A stretch of DNA of 64,000 bases from contig CM019063.1 in NCBI GenBank assembly GCA_009667805.1, forward strand, positions 406,354,959 through 406,418,958. Direction: 5' to 3'. The number at the start of each line of letters is the position of its first letter. Positions within the stretch are counted from its first letter, which is position 1. A program made the translations under genes and the position numbers. Below are positions 6,385 through 55,075 of this stretch, in pieces. Below the pieces are notes generated by a model. It was given only the letters and a program-made list of their open reading frames with translations, searched no databases and was not told where the DNA came from. The stretch comes from Leptobrachium leishanense. Taxonomy: Eukaryota; Chordata; Amphibia; Anura; Megophryidae.

Positions 6385-7150
6385 TTAGGGAATATTCCGA
6401 ATTAGGGAATTGGATTCTAAAGGAAACAGGGAGCCAGTGTAGATATTGACAAAGGGGCAAGGTGCGAGAGATGTGTGAGGTGAGGTGGATGAGCCTGGCA
6501 CAGGTATTCATAACAGACTGCAGAAGGAGAATCTGGGACCTTTTAAGGCCAGAGAGAAGGAGGTTACAGTAGTCAAGGCGGGACATAATAAGAGCTTGGC
6601 TCTTGCGTATTAGCAGAGTCCTAATTAAGACAGGGACAGATGCGTGCAATTTTCTTTGGTGGAAGCAGCAAGATTTGGTTAGTGACTGAATCTGAGGAGA
6701 GATCAGAGTCGAGGAGGACCCCGAGGCAATAAGCCTGGGAGGTAGAAGTAATGCTGGCACCATTCACCTGAAGGGAAATGGCTGTGAGAATGTTGGATTT
6801 AGAGGGAGGGAAGATGAGAAGTTCAGTTTTGGAGAGGTTAAACTTTAGGAAATGGGTAGTCATCCAGTTGGAGACAGCTGACAGGCAGGCAGCAACACAG
6901 TCCAACACAGGAGGAGAGAGATTGGGGAAGGAAAGGTAGATTTGGGTGTCGTCAGCATAGAATGATATTGGAGTCCATAGGAAGAAATGAGGTTGCCCAG
7001 AGAGGCAGTATAGATTGAGAAGAGTACTGGACCCAGAACAGAGCCTTGATATACCCCAACTGAAAGAGGAACTTGGGTGAAGAGGCACCAGCAAAAGAAA
7101 CAATGAAGGAGTGAAGAGACAGATAGGAAGAGAACAATTCTCTTAAGTTT
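6385..7150 (-). pseudogene. L2-type LINE reverse transcriptase fragment
   Basis: Broken coding remnant of a non-LTR retrotransposon read on the minus strand in at least three frames. From high to low coordinate it shows the YQGSVLGPVLFS block (RT), the catalytic FYADDTQIYLS block near 6940-6960, then SKTELLIFP, then LIMSRLDYCNLLLSGL and LHWLPVSFRIQF near the C-terminal end. YADDTQ together with SRLDYCN and LHWLPV is characteristic of the L2/CR1 branch. The endonuclease part and the 3' terminal repeat are missing and several frameshifts are present, so it is dead. Its upstream edge is included in the inverted copy at 1-213. Confidence 0.8.
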
Positions 7151-7320
7151 CAACTTTAGTGAATAGACCCGATAGTATTTTGTCTGCACCAGAGAAGACC
7201 AAAACACAATATTTTAATTACACTAAGCTCTCTGTATAAAGCCAGGCAAATTATTTGTATTGACTATCTGTGCATCTGCTATTTTGCCTTGTCTTTAACG
7301 GTTGAAATGTTTTTTGCTCT
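7106..7320. repeat. Inverted partner of 1-213
   Basis: Reverse complement of 1-213 with only a few differences. It includes the edge of the L2 fragment and ~170 bases of unknown sequence. Confidence 0.7.
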
Positions 7321-7729
7321 GAGAAAATATGTGTGTAATTTCAAGGAGTTGTATTCACAGAATGCAGGATGATTCAACATATTGCATCTGTAATTAAAAT
7401 GGTGTGGATGGATGTTCAAGGTTATCCAAATTTTTAGTGTAATTTGTCTAAACTACAAATAGTTTGTTTTGGATGAAATGATTAGATCATAGTTTATTTC
7501 TGGGCAAAAATAAATACTCTTACATATTTTCCAATATTGTTTTTGTGGAAATTCATTGGAGGAAAGGTTTTGTTTCAAGAGAAAAATATAAGCTACCCCC
7601 TTATTTTAATAAATGTGTGACTTGACTGCAGGTTCAGGGAGTCTGTGTTTTGTACATGAGAGAAAAACCTGTTATGTCCCCCTTTTTGTCTCTTTGGACA
7701 ACAAAACGTCTTCCAAATGGAGTGGTGTG
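7321..7729. other. No recognised feature; hAT target site
   Basis: Unique-looking AT-rich sequence. The last eight bases (GTGGTGTG, 7722-7729) are the left target-site duplication of the hAT element that follows. Confidence 0.5.
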
Positions 7730-8604: not shown

Positions 8605-11600
8605 CTACAGAGTCAGTGGACAAACGCACTCTTTTGTCTGTGACAAAACCTCCAGCGGCACTGACGTCCTTTCAGAAAGCACGCTGGATGAAGGGCAACC
8701 TAGTAGCTGCATAGCATATTGGCTAAGCTCTGTCCAGTGATCCAATCTCAACACCCAGAAAGCCAGTGGATCATCTGCTGTAAAGGTATCCAGGTCTGCC
8801 CTTGCCCCTAGGTAGTCCTGCACCATATGGTGAAGATGCTGGCAATGGGTGCCTACATTTAAAAAGGCATCAGTCAAGCAGCCCCACCTTCACCGCTCTT
8901 CCTCTGATCATCCACAGCCTCAGAAGCACCTGTGTCATCATTTGGTAACCTACCAGTGCCTGGAAAGGTGTTACACAAGTGTCGCTTTAGAGCGTACTCA
9001 AGTTGTTTCATCCTGTGCTCCCTCTGTGCAGGCAGGAAGAGCTCTGCAACTTTACCCTTGTATCGTGGATCAAGAAGGCTTGCCAACCAGTAATGATTCC
9101 TCTCCTTGATAGCACAAATCCTGGGGTCCTTTAGCAGGCTTTGCAGGATAAGGGAGCTCATGCAGCATAGGTTGGAGGTGGCATTAGCTTCCGAGTCTTC
9201 CTGGTCAATGAGGATGACCCCATCGTGCACTTCCTCCTCCCAGCCACGTACTAGTCCATGTGTTTCTGGGCACACAAAACCCTCCCTTGAGAAATCCCCA
9301 CCTTCAATGCCCCCACTACTTAAATATTCCTCCTCATCCTCCTCCTGTCTGATCTGAGGACCTGCAGGAATGCTGTCTGCGTAAAGACTGGGGCCTTGAG
9401 AGCTAGGGAAGGCCTCCTCTTCCTCCCGCTGCTCTGCCTCTGGTGCCACATCTATAATTCCCTGCAGAGTGCGCTCCAGCAGGAACACTAAAGGAATTGT
9501 GTCACTGATGCATGCACTGTCCCTGCTCACCATCCTCGTTGCCTCCTCAAATGGTGACAGTACAGTGTATGCATCCTTGATCATCAGCCACTGCGGGGGG
9601 GAAAAAAAACAAGTTGACCTAAACCTGTCCTTGTGCCATACTCACACAGGTACTCGTTGATTGCCCTCTGCTGCTTGTGCAGACGCTGCAGCATTGCTAA
9701 TGTTGAGTTCCACCTGGTGGGCAAGTCACAGATCAGACGATTTGTGGGAAGGTGGAATTCTCTTTGAATTTCTGCCAGGCAAACACTTGCTGGGAATGAC
9801 CGTCTGAAGTGGCTGCAGACTTTTCTGGCCTGGCTGAGAAGTTGTGCCAGCCCTGGGTACCTGGTTAGGAAACGCTGTACCACCAGATTTAGGATGTGTG
9901 CTATGCATGGTACATGCGTCAACTTACCCTTGCATAGGGCGGAGAGAAGGTTGCTGCCATTATCACAGACGACCATTCTCAGCTGAAGCTGGCGTGGTGT
10001 TAACCATCTCTGCACCTGCCCCTGCAGAGCTGACAGAATTTCTGGCCTGGTGTGACTCCTGTCCCCTAAACAAACCAGCTCAAGCACAGTATGGCATCTT
10101 TTTTGCTTGAGCCATTGCATAGCCCCTGCCACACGTCGGTTTAACTGCCACTTCGCAAGAGACAGAGAAGGAGGATGAGGAAAAAGTGCTGGAGCAGACA
10201 GACCTCATACAAGCAGCTTTCTGGAGGCGTGGTGGATGAACAAGCTCCAGCACAGAGCCCGTCTTGAATCCCTCCCAGCTGCAATCATGGTAACCCAGTG
10301 TGCCGTGAAGGAAATGTAACGGCCCTGTCCATGCTTGCTGGACCACGTGTCTAAAGTCATGTGCACCTTTCTGCTGACTGCCTTTCCCAATGACTCCATA
10401 ACATTGTGTTACACGTGCTGGTATAGTGCTGGAATGGCCTTCCGTGAAAAGAAATGGCATTTTGGAACCTGCCACTGTGGTACAGCACATTCAGCAAATT
10501 CACAGAAGGAAGCAGAGACCACCAGCTGGAAAGGCAGCAGCTGCAATGCGAGTAATTTTGCTAAGTTGGCATTTAGACGCTGTGCTTGTGGATGTTTGGG
10601 ACTATATTTTTTCTTACGCTGCAGCAGCTGAGGCAACGTAATCTGACTGCGTAAATCTTCAGCTGATGGGATGCTGTCACATTGTGAGGAAGGACCTGGT
10701 ACACCCATTACTGTAGCATCATCCCTGTCAGTGGAGGTTGTAGGCAATGACATGGCAGGACATATAGTGGGGGTAGAGACAGATGAGGAGGAGGACCTAT
10801 GCAAAGTGTTGTGCCAACGGGATGCGTGGCAGGTGGTCATATGTCGCCTCAAGCACGTGGTACCCAAGCGTGGGATGTCTTTCCCACGCTTGATCCTCAT
10901 CTGACATAGATTACAAATAGCAACTGTGCAATCTGCTGCACATTTCTTAAAGAACTCCCAGACAGCAAACTTCCTGTACATATGCTTTGAGACAACAGCA
11001 CTCTGCACCTGAGCAGCTGTGACTTCTGATGCCTTGGACTGGCTATGGTTGGTCATAGAGGACGTTGTGCCTCATGTTTGTTGTGCTTCCTCCTCCTCCC
11101 TTGACTCTTGTTCGATCAGGCACCCAGGTGGAGTCAGTGACCTCATCATCGTCATCACCTCCTATCTCCTCGTCACTGGAACCAACTTGGCAGTATGTTG
11201 CAGCTGCTGGGGCAACATGAGTGCCAGTTATTTGTGTGTCACTGGCACCCCCTTCCTCTAGGTTGATTATACTCCCTTCCTCAACCTCAGAGATTGAATC
11301 AGAGCACTGTAGTTGCTGCACATCCTCAAGCAGCATGTCACTGTCACTGTAGTCAAACAAATCAGCTGACTCCTCTGTGTATGTTGGTGAGGCTGCGGCA
11401 GGAGTAGCTGTGGACATGGAGGCTGAATTAGATGTTTTGGCAGCTGAGGTAGACTGTAAACCACTACAAGCCTGGCTGGCAGAGGACTCGGAGGACTCAG
11501 ATGGCCTGGTTAGCCAATCCTGCAAATCCTCTGTATGTTGCTGCTGCTTAAGACGGCCAGCGCCTGTTAGAAAGGACAAGCGTGCCCTTGCAGAGGATGC

Positions 11601-11705
11601 ACCACGTCCACGACGACCAGAGGCACAGCCTCCTGACACAGAGGCTGCTTGCCCTCTTATCTGTGTCTGGGAGCGTCTGCCTGTCCTTTTTGGTCTTTCT
11701 GACAT
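8605..11705 (-). pseudogene. hAT transposase, BED-finger type, frameshifted
   Basis: The protein would bind the element ends and catalyse cut-and-paste transposition in the nucleus. The start is taken at MSERPKRTGRR (11705). An acidic Ser-rich region follows to ~11043. A BED-type zinc finger (CNLCQMRIKRG...RRHMTTCH) is near 10870-10940. The first catalytic block (MTLDTWSSKHGQGRYISFTA) is near 10300-10365. The second (VVCDNGSNLLSAL) and the PCIAHILNLVVQ motif are near 9900-9985, followed by LPTRWNSTLAMLQRL near 9670-9740. The C-terminal dimerisation region (DPLAFWVLRLDHWTELSQYA) with the SERT motif that carries the expected catalytic Glu is near 8670-8790. The reading frame changes at about 11050, 10410, 10100, 9590 and 8875; one break lies by the ggggggaaaaaaaa run at 9595. 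It is therefore inactive, although conserved blocks survive. Relatives include ZBED-type domesticated genes, but the TSDs and frameshifts argue for a plain transposon. Confidence 0.88.
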
Positions 11706-11832
11706 GGTAACTGATATATAGATTAAAGATATACAGAACTCTGATTCAACTCTGTTATAAAAATTGGAGATATGCAGAACTCTGATTCAACTGTGTTATC
11801 TAGATTAAAGATTTCCAGAACTCTGGTATAAC

Positions 11833-17832: not shown

Positions 17833-18090
17833 AGATAATCAAGAGGGAATTGGCAGCAGATCCTTTCACTGCTTTAATGAAAATTCATATGCATATGATA
17901 AGCACATATTCCCTATTATTCTAATTTAATGTCTGTGCTTTCTTCACAGATGTCTTCCATCTGCTTATAAAGAAAGGGAGTTATCCACTAAGTGCCGGCC
18001 ATCATTGCGAATACCAGTAAAAATTGTCAGTGTTGCAGTGCTGTCAAACACCAGCATTTATCAAAACTAAAATCCAAATACTGTACACTC
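17833..18090. other. No recognised feature
   Basis: AT-rich linker with no clear features. Confidence 0.3.
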
Positions 18091-18097
18091 GCTGTAT

Positions 18098-18203
18098 CCT
18101 TATTTTTTTTTAATTTATTTATTTTTATTTTATTTATTTATAAAGGATTTTACCAGGAAGGATACATTGAGATTTCTCTCGTTTTCAAGTATGTCCTGGG
18201 TTC
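18098..18203 (-). mobile_element. Short retroposon tail, copy 1
   Basis: On the minus strand: cccaggacatacttgaaaac, gagagaaatctcaatgtatc, cttcctggtaaaatcc, then an A-rich tail (the T-rich run 18098-18142 on the plus strand). The same core recurs at 18936, 33093, 39328 and 48548. The A-tail at one end suggests the 3' end of a SINE or LINE. Confidence 0.65.
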
Positions 18204-18692
18204 AAGAACATTGAGTGGTTACAGAAATACAAAATAGTAAAATGCAAGATATTAACACAAAACAAATATACAGATTAACAAAAAAATAAATATGTAGGAA
18301 ATAAAGTCATTATGTCACATGTTTACAGGAGCATTCCGTATTGAGGTTCAGTATGTTAATAGGGAATTCTTAAGGGAACAAAATGTCTTCACTCAGTGTT
18401 TTATTAGCTACAGAATGACTCTTTTTAGTTTTCCAAAAACAAACCAAGATTGAAGTATAGACTTGGCGTTACTAGGTGATCATTGGACTAGTTTAGAAAT
18501 CAAGCATCAGCATCATTTATACATTCATGATTTCAGAACGACTAGGGAATTATTATCCCGATAATGTCACAAGCATAATGCTAGAGTTATTTAATTTAAA
18601 TAATTTAGCCTACAAATATATGTTCAGATGACAAAGCTCCAAGCTGTCTATGGCTTCCGATTCATTTTAGGAGGATCATCATTTTTGACATA
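18204..18692. other. No recognised feature
   Basis: No coding signal or repeat seen. It could be the body of the retroposon whose tail is at 18098-18203, but I have no second copy to compare. Confidence 0.3.
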
Positions 18693-52139: not shown

Positions 52140-52342
52140 ACCCAGGCGAGTGAGGATAGCAGGAGATGATGCTACTGAAACCCATTGAGACCATATCAAC
52201 ATATAACGGGGAAGTTGGTCAGTGGATGACAAGTAAAAACGCTCCACCGCTCTGAGTTCCTCCATTCTTCGAAACCACACTCGGAGAGGGGGAGGGGGAG
52301 GGGAAGTCTGTCTCCAATATAGGGGAATCAGGCCCTTGGCAA
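52140..52342 (-). pseudogene. L1 ORF2 C-terminal end, downstream piece
   Basis: NVAKGLIPLYWRQTSPPPPP, LRVWFRRMEELRAVERFYLS, DQLPRYMLIWSQWVSV: the last segment of L1 ORF2, continuing from 54187 across the L2 insertion. Followed by a short 3' untranslated part and the A-tail. Confidence 0.8.
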
Positions 52343-52872
52343 CATTAAGAATTCGGCCATTTCTTACCGCTGTCACCACAAAACAACTCATACATGCCCT
52401 GGTAATCTCCCGACTCGACTATTGCAATAATCTCTTATCTGGCCTCCCTCTGTCCCGCCTCTCCCCCCTACAATCCATCCTGAACGCCTCCGCCAGGCTA
52501 ATTCACCTCACCCGCCGCTCTGTCTCTGCCGCTCCCCTCTGCGAGTCCCTTCACTGGCTCCCCATCCACTGCAGAATTAAGTTCAAAATCCTTATCCTTA
52601 CCTACAAAACCCTCACTAACTCAGCTCCCCACTACCTGTCCTCACTAATCACCAAATACACCCCAGCCCGCTCCCTAAGGTCAAACAGTGACCTGCGCCT
52701 AGCTTCTCCCTGCATCACCTCTTCCCATGATAGACTGCAGGATTTCTCACGCGCAGCCCCCACTCTCTGGAACGCTCTCCCTCGTACTGTCAGACTTTCC
52801 CCTAACTTCTCTTCCTTCAAACACTCCCTTAAAACGTTCCTATTTAGGGAAGCCTACCATCCAACTCACTGA
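52343..52872 (+). pseudogene. L2 reverse transcriptase C-terminal part
   Basis: Continuous frame of ~178 residues: LRIRPFLTAVTTKQLIHALV, SRLDYCNNLLSGLPLSRLSP, LHWLPIHCRIKFKILILTYK, LQDFSRAAPTLWNALPRTVR, FKHSLKTFLFREAYHPTH and stop. These are the conserved C-terminal blocks of L2 ORF2 after the polymerase motifs. It has no catalytic domain because of 5' truncation, but this piece has no internal stop, so the insertion is relatively young. Confidence 0.9.
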
Positions 52873-53027
52873 CACAACCATCAATCACTCTCACTTTACA
52901 GTCCTCTCCTCCTGTTTCCAACCCCAACCCTCCTAGATTGTGAGTTCCTACGGGAATAGGGCCCTCATCTCCTCCTGTACTGTTTGTCAAATGTTGTTCA
53001 ATGTATTGTAACCCTGTCTATACTGTG

Positions 53028-54079
53028 AAAGAAAAGAAAAAAACACTTCCAGGCGCACCTTACTAAAATTTCCACTTTTTTAAAACCAAAAAATGGCCAA
53101 TGTGCAAACATCTAATGAATTAATATTTAAACAAAACAGTGGTATATTATGATAAATGTGTATAACTTAAGGAATACTTATATTTCAGTGGTGTTACTTT
53201 TTTCCCCTTTTCTCAGTATGGGGTCCTGTGATGTAGCTGTTCGGTATCCCAAGAAAAAAGGAGGGGGGAGGGTATTTCTCCACTTGATGTAAAAAAAGGC
53301 AGCAGAGCGGCAGATAATTCAATTAAAATGCATTTATTAATCAATAAAAAGGTAGACCTTCAACTATAAAATCAATTGTTAAAATACTAATTAAGTAGGA
53401 TCAACAAAAACGCGCTTTCACCAATAGGCTTCATCAGTTGTTATCCTTTCTGAATGATCAGTCTGTGCAAGAAGTGCAAAAAGTCCAAAAAGTTTTTGGA
53501 CTTTTTGCACTTCTTGCACAGACTGATCATTCAGAAAGGATAACAACTGATGAAGCATATTGGTGAAAGCGCGTTTTTGTTGATCCTACTTAATTAGTAT
53601 TTTAACAATTGATTTTATAGTTGAAGGTCTACCTTTTTATTGATTAATAAATGCATTTTAATTGAATTATCTGCCGCTCTGCTGCCTTTTTTACATCAAG
53701 TGGAGAAATACCCTCCCCCCTCCTTTTTTCTTGGGATACCGAACAGCTACATCGCAGGACCCCATGCTGAGAGAAGGAAAAAAAAGTATCACCACTGAAA
53801 TATAAGTATTCCTTAAGTTATACACATTTATCATAATATAACCACTGTTTTGTTTAAATATTAATTCATTAGATGTTTGCACATTGGCCATTTTTTGGTT
53901 TTAAAAAAGTGGAAATTTTAGTAAGGTGCGCCTGGAAGTGTTATTTTCTTTTCTTTTATATTCGCGTTTTTGAGGTTGTAAACACATATCTTCTAGCTTG
54001 CAGCACCGACCTATATTGAGCACGCCTTAATAATCTTACAACCACTAAGAAAAGCACCAGATTCACGCTGTCTTTTATT
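53028..54079. mobile_element. Near-perfect foldback with 15-bp TSD (Penelope-like?)
   Basis: Left arm 53028-53491 and right arm 53493-53958 are inverted copies of ~465 bases with a 1-base centre at 53492. A single-copy tail follows (53959-54079). The host sequence cctgtctatactgtg is duplicated exactly on each side (53013-53027, 54080-54094). Each arm carries ctgatga...gaaa boxes (53547-53568 on the plus strand; 53415-53437 inverted) beside gcgcgtttttg, the style of sequence seen in Penelope-like repeats. It contains no ORF. Confidence 0.8.
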
Positions 54080-54186
54080 CCTGTCTATACTGTGCCTATT
54101 GTACAGCGCTGCGGAATATGCTGGCGCTTTATAAATAAAGAATAATAATAATAATAATAATAATAATGCGTGGCAAGATTGATTTC

Positions 54187-55075
54187 TTACAGGCCGACAC
54201 CGACATTGAGGTATGATGTAATAACATGGAGGCAGGCGTGCAAAAAAAAGGGGGGACACCCAAGGAGTTCACTAGCTATTATAAGTAGGCTCGACCAGTA
54301 TGGATGGATCAGGGGACAATCCGACCACAAATGAAGGACAGAACCTGGGGCATCAAAGCAGCGCCAACAATTTGGGGAATTGTCAGGGGAGAACTTTTGT
54401 AGGCGGACAGGGGTGTAATACCAAAGTGTTAATAATTTATACGCCGTTTCCTGGGTTTTGCTGGCTATGGAGCAGCGGTGTGTTAAATCACAGATATCTA
54501 GCCATTGTTCATCCGTCAAGGTACAGTTCAACATCGTTTCCCATTTACCCATGAACGGGGGCGGGATAACCGAGGCCACATCCCTAAGAAGGGAGTATAT
54601 GAATGACACTCCGTTGGTCAATGGGGCAGGCGAGGCACACCAGCGTTCCAGTTGGGTGAATGGGCGTGTGAGCATATGTGGGCGCAGCGCGGTCCTAAGG
54701 CGGGTAGTGACTTGGCGGTATTTGAAGTGGTGCAAAAAGGTTGGCGGCCTATCCCCAATAAGGTGCTGAGAGGCACCAAGCCCGTACTGGTAAGGAAATG
54801 GAGAACTCTAGGTATAGGGGCGGTGGTTAGTGACACTAACGCCCTCGGGCCCATGTGTGACAGAAACCCATCGCAATACGTGATTGGTGTCATTGGAGAG
54901 GGGTATGACGTGAGGCTAGAATGGGTCGCTTCTCGATGCCAACACAGCAGGGAAACTCGTATGGAGACGACCGTGCCATACGGAGGCCCAGCGTACGAGG
55001 CAGCCATGGTAGGACCGCTAGTGGAACCTCCAACAATATTTCTGACTCTCCCAGTCTCTCGCCCCTGATTTTTCA
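54187..55075 (-). pseudogene. L1 ORF2 C-terminal region, upstream piece
   Basis: Minus strand, several frames. Clearest piece 54187-54735: QVTTRLRTALRPHMLTRPFT, SFIYSLLRDV, KTQETAYKLLTLWYYTPVRL, CWRCFDAPGSVLHLWSDCPL. KLL-WYYTP-RL and the CWRC...H.W..C motif are conserved in the C-terminal part of vertebrate L1 ORF2. Further upstream (54735-55070) the frames are broken. The L2 insertion at ~52343-54168 separates it from its last ~60 codons (NVAKGLIPLYWRQTSPP onward, 52391-52140). Confidence 0.82.

What the first reader, a model, noticed from the sequence alone, without database searches (positions are those of the whole stretch)
53028..54079. A ~930-bp near-perfect foldback with 15-bp TSD and hammerhead-like boxes
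Seen: two ~465-bp inverted arms with a one-base centre at 53492, then a 121-bp single-copy tail, all between exact 15-bp duplications cctgtctatactgtg. Each arm contains ctgatga (53547-53553) followed by gaaa (53565-53568); in the left arm the bases between them can pair as GCC/GGU (stem II). Known: hammerhead ribozymes use CUGAUGA and GAAA boxes, and Penelope-like retroelements carry them in their repeats, which can be inverted. Inference: a non-autonomous Penelope-like element, possibly a retroposed inverted dimer. The right arm has lost one stem II pair (GCA).
Basis: partly seen in the sequence, partly recalled or inferred. Interest (0 to 1): 0.75.

Follow-up and report, generated by a model that had tools for sequence, protein, structure and literature searches.

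The report
Foldback insertion of a Penelope retroelement
A 1-kb mirror-image DNA repeat in a probable frog genome is the two-sided footprint of a Penelope-type jumping gene, and its many copies suggest that the element's enzyme copied one RNA onto both cut strands of the target.

Summary
In detail: a near-perfect foldback (53028-53956), a single-copy tail (53957-54079), an exact 15-bp target duplication, and a paralogous empty site. Copies are numerous in this 3.5-Gb genome. The foldback was not copied as a unit: the arms of a copy share subfamily variants (382 of 401 cells), either arm may be shortened at the centre, and all 24 foldbacks scored have exactly one tail, although 14 single-armed copies end at the two sites 7:7. 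This fits reverse transcription primed from both cut target strands, at an inner and an outer start site, perhaps of one RNA. Inverted pLTRs with one optional tail are published and were put down to self-priming; the ends seen here speak against that, but later deletions at the palindrome centre could mimic part of the evidence. The hammerhead boxes are beyond chance and recur with different stems elsewhere in the genome, but Rfam gives no match, stem III is spoiled, and no foldback arm starts at the predicted cut.

The parts
53013..53027 (.). left copy of the 15-bp target-site duplication
   Evidence: single copy in the paralogous empty site
53028..53491 (-). inner-primed arm: pLTR sequence in reverse orientation, outer end at the ARM/TAIL boundary (inner reverse-transcription start site, inferred)
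53492..53492 (.). centre of the foldback, where the two cDNA ends (RNA 5' end, inferred) are joined
   Evidence: single-armed copies also begin at ARM 1-6
53493..53956 (+). outer-primed arm (ARM): pLTR sequence in element orientation
   Evidence: same sequence beside the Penelope ORF on C10
53957..54079 (+). TAIL: stretch between the inferred inner and outer reverse-transcription start sites, present once per foldback
54080..54094 (.). right copy of the 15-bp target-site duplication
53538..53586 (+). hammerhead-like motif, right arm (stem I GGATAACAA/TTGTTGATCC, CTGATGA 53547-53553, GAAA 53565-53568; stem II weakened by GCA)
   Evidence: no Rfam match
53398..53446 (-). hammerhead-like motif, left arm (family form with GCC/GGT stem II)

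Best explanation
The feature is a non-autonomous insertion of a Penelope-like element (PLE) consisting only of pLTR sequence. RNA begins near ARM position 1-2, with a TATAAG/TATAAA starting 26 nt upstream in longer copies (inferred start site), and runs through TAIL towards the ORF. The PLE enzyme nicks both target strands; one 3' end primes at the inner start site (ARM/TAIL boundary), the other at the outer site (TAIL end). Each cDNA runs towards the RNA 5' end or stops early, and the two cDNA ends are joined head to head, often with a small filler, giving arm-centre-arm-tail between duplications of mostly 13-17 bp. Shown: PLE parentage, ends, duplications, one tail per scored foldback, matching haplotypes of the arms. 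Inferred: priming on both strands, use of one and the same RNA, end-joining at the centre, and the RNA start.
For: PLE parent: the C10 relative has a pLTR fragment (ARM 143-461 plus TAIL), a frame with RVT_1 (E 8.9e-10), a second frame with a GIY-YIG match (20.9 bits, cutoff 22.6), a nested LTR element, 3' UTR, ARM and TAIL. The TAIL end of its 5' pLTR (position 7382) lies about 50 nt before an ATG-started frame. Exactly one TAIL in 24 of 24 foldbacks scored; in 21 of 24 the other outer end is the inner site (ARM 455-465). In the ARM-only search, not biased to TAIL, 14 of 14 foldbacks with both ends identified are of mixed type (ends), while 14 single-armed copies (13 of them from that search) end 7 inner, 7 outer (duplication clear by eye in about half). 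Arms of a copy share haplotype: 382 of 401 informative cells agree, against 68% on average and 78% at most when partners are shuffled 2000 times; L-R divergence within a copy 1.1% against 2.7-3.0% between copies, 13 copies. Central shortening hits either arm: inner-primed in L010, L011, L015; outer-primed in L068-L071. Among 129 RT hits, the 12 neighbour pairs under 10 kb are 10 divergent, 2 tandem, 0 convergent. Published biochemistry: the Anolis PLE protein cuts and extends both strands and has two start sites bounding the tail (PMC11167929, main text).
Against: The in vitro study reports no difference in start site between top and bottom strand, so obligate mixing is not predicted by it. 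Matching arms could also come from two RNAs of one locus or from later gene conversion; 19 of 401 cells disagree. Asymmetric centres could be later deletions in an unstable palindrome. 3 of 24 foldbacks (L013, L016, L017) have another outer end; L017 has a good duplication, so the inner site is not the only possible start. 20 of the 24 came from a query containing TAIL. Of three long RT-bearing foldbacks fetched, two had ends that I examined (L065, L066) and neither gave a clear duplication or end pair.
Confidence: 0.72

Rival explanations
1. Self-priming (snap-back): one cDNA or antisense RNA folds back at the end that corresponds to the RNA 5' end and copies itself, giving a hairpin; published for rotifer PLEs as the likely source of head-to-head pLTRs.
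For: Explains identical haplotypes in both arms and symmetric centres; proposed in PMC3846280 (passages).
Against: A snap-back copy of a tail-bearing arm should include the tail, and of a tail-less arm cannot gain one; yet exactly one tail is found in 24 of 24, and in L068-L071 the longer arm is the tail-less one. The second arm ends at the inner site in 21 of 24.
Confidence: 0.15
2. Unit propagation: the foldback itself is transcribed and retroposed as one non-autonomous element.
For: Many copies share nearly the same centre.
Against: Variants are shared across the two arms of a copy, and left arms are no closer to left arms than to right arms of other copies; central bases differ from copy to copy; the shared centre is also where single-armed copies begin.
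Confidence: 0.06
3. Symmetric foldbacks by any route, later trimmed by deletions at the palindrome centre.
For: Perfect palindromes are known to be unstable (recalled); shortening hits either arm about equally.
Against: In the shortened copies L011, L015 and L068-L071 the longer arm still reaches ARM 2-6, near the RNA 5' end; a deletion would rarely stop just there. Does not explain the mixed ends.
Confidence: 0.2
4. DNA transposon of the foldback type.
For: Long inverted arms.
Against: Duplications of 13-17 bp in 18 of 24, one-sided tail, single-armed copies, and a relative with an RT and a GIY-YIG match. I ran no search for a transposase.
Confidence: 0.01

Closest known systems
Penelope-like elements with inverted pLTR and optional tail (Adineta vaga Pen2a and others; PMC3846280)
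   Same: RT plus GIY-YIG, pLTRs, head-to-head inverted pLTR, short tail on one of the inverted pLTRs, target duplication (passages)
   Different: Here the insertion is pLTR-only, ORF-less and high copy, tail 121 bp instead of 31, duplications mostly 13-17 bp instead of 8-10
PAc (Poseidon of Anolis carolinensis; PMC11167929, main text read)
   Same: Two internal start sites bounding the tail; both target strands cut and extended; hammerhead motif
   Different: In PAc the commonest start lies about 111-118 bp inside the ORF and the hammerhead overlaps the ORF start; here the inferred sites lie about 50 and 170 nt before the ATG and the motif lies near the RNA 5' end. PAc shows no strand difference in start site in vitro
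Amphibian retrozymes (axolotl, newt; PMC7229834, passages)
   Same: Non-autonomous; weak hammerhead helix III that works better as a dimer
   Different: Those are short tandem repeats of about 330-350 bp, not foldbacks; here stem III is spoiled in the family form

Membership tests
Penelope-like element (derivative) | RT of the Penelope kind in a relative with the same termini | tested here: met
   RVT_1 E 8.9e-10; best named relatives are frog (Leptobrachium) 'reverse transcriptase domain-containing' proteins, 56% identity; ARM and TAIL on both sides of the ORF. That the RT is of the Penelope clade rests on recalled motifs and its GIY-YIG partner; no tree was built
Penelope-like element (derivative) | GIY-YIG endonuclease | tested here: inconclusive
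   PF01541 E 0.00046, 20.9 bits, curated cutoff 22.6
Penelope-like element (derivative) | pLTRs | tested here: met
   direct repeat 6940-7396 and 17908-18365 of the C10 stretch, 96%; the 5' one lacks ARM 1-142
Penelope-like element (derivative) | optional tail on one end | tested here: met
   24 of 24 foldbacks have one tail; single-armed copies with and without
Penelope-like element (derivative) | target-site duplication | tested here: met
   exact 13-17 bp in 18 of 24, 7-10 bp in 4, none convincing in 2; empty site for the window copy
Hammerhead ribozyme (type I, minimal) | Rfam covariance-model match | tested here: not met
   none at gathering in the window, none at E up to 10 in 52900-54200 and 53515-53620, up to 5 in 13 loci, up to 10 in 6 more. 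No positive control was run
Hammerhead ribozyme (type I, minimal) | core boxes CUGANGA and GAAA with stems I and II | tested here: met
   conserved in the family, 23 of 40 aligned arms identical over the stretch; three differing stem sets in this genome: arm family, L091/L092, flank of L087. Stem II needs one extra A, and the minimum-energy fold does not leave the core free
Hammerhead ribozyme (type I, minimal) | stem III / A15.1-U16.1 pairing | tested here: inconclusive
   family form GAAA-GCGCG-TTT breaks the CGCG palindrome; pairing possible only as a dimer with a G-U pair (own reading; dimer fold not decisive)
Hammerhead ribozyme (type I, minimal) | self-cleavage | not testable with these tools
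   no assay; among the arm starts of 24 foldbacks none lies at the predicted cut (about ARM 86, own reading; nearest 71)

The most novel reading that the evidence does not exclude
A PLE enzyme uses one RNA molecule twice: each of the two target strands primes at a different one of two built-in start sites, so that every two-sided insertion has one tail and two arms of the same haplotype. The tail is then the spacing between the sites of two paired polymerases, not an optional ornament.
Probability: 0.45. Interest if true: 0.68.

Novelty: new member of a known kind. Interest (0 to 1): 0.48.

Why it matters
How Penelope-like elements insert is an open question. Head-to-head pLTRs with a tail on one side were already called typical in the rotifer study, which favoured self-priming and asked for experiments (passages). 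This family offers dozens of short, readable insertions in which ends, centre and haplotypes can be read together, and makes 'two strands, two start sites, one RNA' directly testable with the purified-enzyme assay already in print.

Tried and rejected
Rfam matches at the centre (miRNA and other families) are below their gathering scores and follow from the palindrome; rejected. Unit propagation was tested and disfavoured; a DNA-transposon origin was rejected on the ends and the RT-bearing relative. A role of ribozyme cleavage in setting the 5' ends was considered: no foldback arm starts at about ARM 86; single-armed copies start at ARM 1-6. L065-L067 (long RT-bearing foldbacks) gave no clean end pair; L067's ends were not examined. 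Solved structures: no match. Rows dropped: L024 made the first end-scoring script fail and was left out of the 24, though by eye it looks like a foldback with a 14-nt inner arm; UTR-bearing ends L072, L073, L076, L079, L082, L085 (four inner, two outer) and L019, L020 (outer) were left out of the single-armed count because their 5' sides were not read to the end or belong to longer copies; L086 was kept although its upstream bases faintly resemble the UTR end. L018 and L019 look like one locus on two contigs, and L018 was left out from then on.

Searches did not complete: the genome-wide hammerhead pattern and the TAIL-only search.

Full report
Observation. The foldback, its one-base centre, the single-copy tail and the exact 15-bp duplication are present as described. 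Joining the two flanks after one duplication copy gives a sequence that aligns gap-free (381 of 392) to another copy of the host repeat, in L066, so the insertion and its duplication are real.

Copies. A whole-element search gave 96 matching stretches with 40 of 765 candidates scored; an ARM-only search gave 53 stretches with 40 of 606 scored. Counts are therefore lower bounds. Layouts were read for 28 loci, 27 of them with ends, and for 20 more.

Parent. Upstream of ARM in some copies lies a shared stretch. One such copy on C10, 84.68-84.70 Mb, holds a pLTR fragment (ARM 143-461 plus TAIL), a frame with RVT_1, a second frame with a GIY-YIG match just below the curated cutoff, a nested LTR element with LTRs of about 713 bp (Gypsy-type by eye), the 3' UTR, ARM and TAIL. 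The two pLTR copies are 96% identical over about 457 bp. ARM and TAIL are thus PLE pLTR sequence. Of 30 RT loci compared with this relative, eight loci (seven insertions: L036, L039/L057, L042, L044, L046, L048, L049) show the same head-to-head layout within the stretch held; the centre of L039/L057 holds a host repeat. Among all 129 RT hits the 12 neighbour pairs within 10 kb are 10 divergent, 2 tandem, 0 convergent.

Ends. In 24 foldbacks scored there is one TAIL each; in 21 the opposite outer end is the ARM/TAIL boundary (ARM 455-465), the exceptions being L013, L016 and L017. Twenty of the 24 came from a query that included TAIL. In the ARM-only search, 14 of 14 foldbacks with both ends identified are mixed (L001, L002, L003, L005-L011, L068-L071); L016 and L065 in that list lack an identifiable second end and L024 was not scored. 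Single-armed copies whose 5' side shows no match to the parent end at the inner site in 7 (L074, L075, L077, L080, L083, L084, L086) and at the outer site in 7 (L021, L022, L023, L025, L078, L081, L087) (L025 is only; the upstream sides of L021-L025 were compared with each other and with L009, L010, L018-L020, the others with the parent); by eye a duplication is clear in about half of them. If ends were chosen independently at these rates, half of the foldbacks should be unmixed; 14 of 14 mixed has a probability of about 0.00006 (own arithmetic, assuming that single-armed copies show the same preferences).

Centre. Symmetric copies meet at ARM 1-11 with -1 to 7 extra bases; L012 has 13. Shortened copies: inner-primed arm from ARM 69, 200 and 393 (L011, L010, L015); outer-primed arm from 54, 71, 169 and 179 (L068, L069, L070, L071), the last four with 4-15 filler bases, some resembling nearby ARM sequence by eye. 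L009 has about 178 nt of inverted and 385 nt of direct upstream sequence between its arms, so its two cDNAs stopped at different points beyond ARM. Single-armed copies begin at ARM 1-6, and a TATAAG or TATAAA starts 26 nt upstream in longer copies, which suggests that ARM 1-2 is the RNA 5' end (inference).

Haplotypes. At 22 informative columns, 382 of 401 cells agree between the two arms of a copy; shuffled partners agree in 68% on average and 78% at most in 2000 shuffles. Seven of the 19 disagreements fall in one column (297). Among the 13 copies with two long arms, most internal variable columns have the same counts in left and right arms; columns 17, 22, 296 and 299 differ somewhat. So the arms arise together from one source sequence, anew at each insertion.

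Mechanism. Priming from both cut target strands, at different start sites of one RNA, explains one tail per foldback, shared haplotypes, shortening of either arm and outward 3' ends. It builds on the Anolis PLE work, where the protein cuts and extends both strands and the tail equals the stretch between two start sites; that paper saw no start-site difference between strands (PMC11167929, abstract and main text). The rotifer study describes inverted pLTRs with a tail on one and favours self-priming on an antisense template, leaving the question open (PMC3846280, passages). My searches (listings; open-access library only) showed no paper that by title or start of abstract proposes two-strand priming from one RNA for PLE foldbacks; the main hammerhead-in-PLE paper (Cervera and De la Pena 2014) was not held, and older PLE papers cited by the rotifer study were not seen. 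Passages of a 2017 hammerhead review (PMC6155905) and of a 2026 Drosophila virilis study (PMC12910113) added nothing on the layout.

Hammerhead. The family form GGATAACAA-CTGATGA-A-GCC-TATT-GGT-GAAA-GCGCG-TTT-TTGTTGATCC is conserved (23 of 40 aligned arms identical over the stretch). It exceeds chance as an arrangement (1 of 5000 shuffles), not as a fold (z -0.8 to -1.5). The same architecture, with the same extra A in stem II but different stems and a clean CGCG stem III, occurs in L091 and L092 (a second PLE family) and in the flank of L087. Rfam recognises none of the loci tried (L087 was not tried). A published screen rejected candidates with mispairs next to the core (PMC3088659, passages). 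I read it as a genuine but probably weakened PLE hammerhead that does not set the ends of these insertions.

Verdict. An element of a known kind with a known odd layout, but a copy set that bears unusually clearly on how the layout arises.

Noticed in passing
L091 from 264, L092 from 148 (second PLE family), L087 minus strand from 679 (flank): Clear minimal hammerhead-like motifs with differing, pairing stems; Rfam gives no match in L091 and L092 even at E 10.
   Followed up: partly
G000, e.g. C2:28421887-28433041, C8:124907666-124910393: A second, abundant PLE group (RT about 57% identical to the first; many open frames of about 801 aa) also lies in divergent head-to-head pairs.
   Followed up: partly
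window 52237-53027 and 54095-54165: The foldback sits in another repeat that by eye resembles the C-terminal part of a LINE reverse transcriptase followed by an AAT-rich microsatellite.
   Followed up: partly
L021 left flank: About 19 bases of unexplained sequence lie between the left duplication and the start of a single-armed copy (by eye).
   Followed up: no
L018 / L019 (C4569 and C2:184.35 Mb): The same PLE copy with its flanks on two contigs at 99.5% or more: probably an unplaced haplotype copy.
   Followed up: no
window 8874-11786 (minus): Open frames resembling a BED-finger/hAT-type transposase (by eye only).
   Followed up: no
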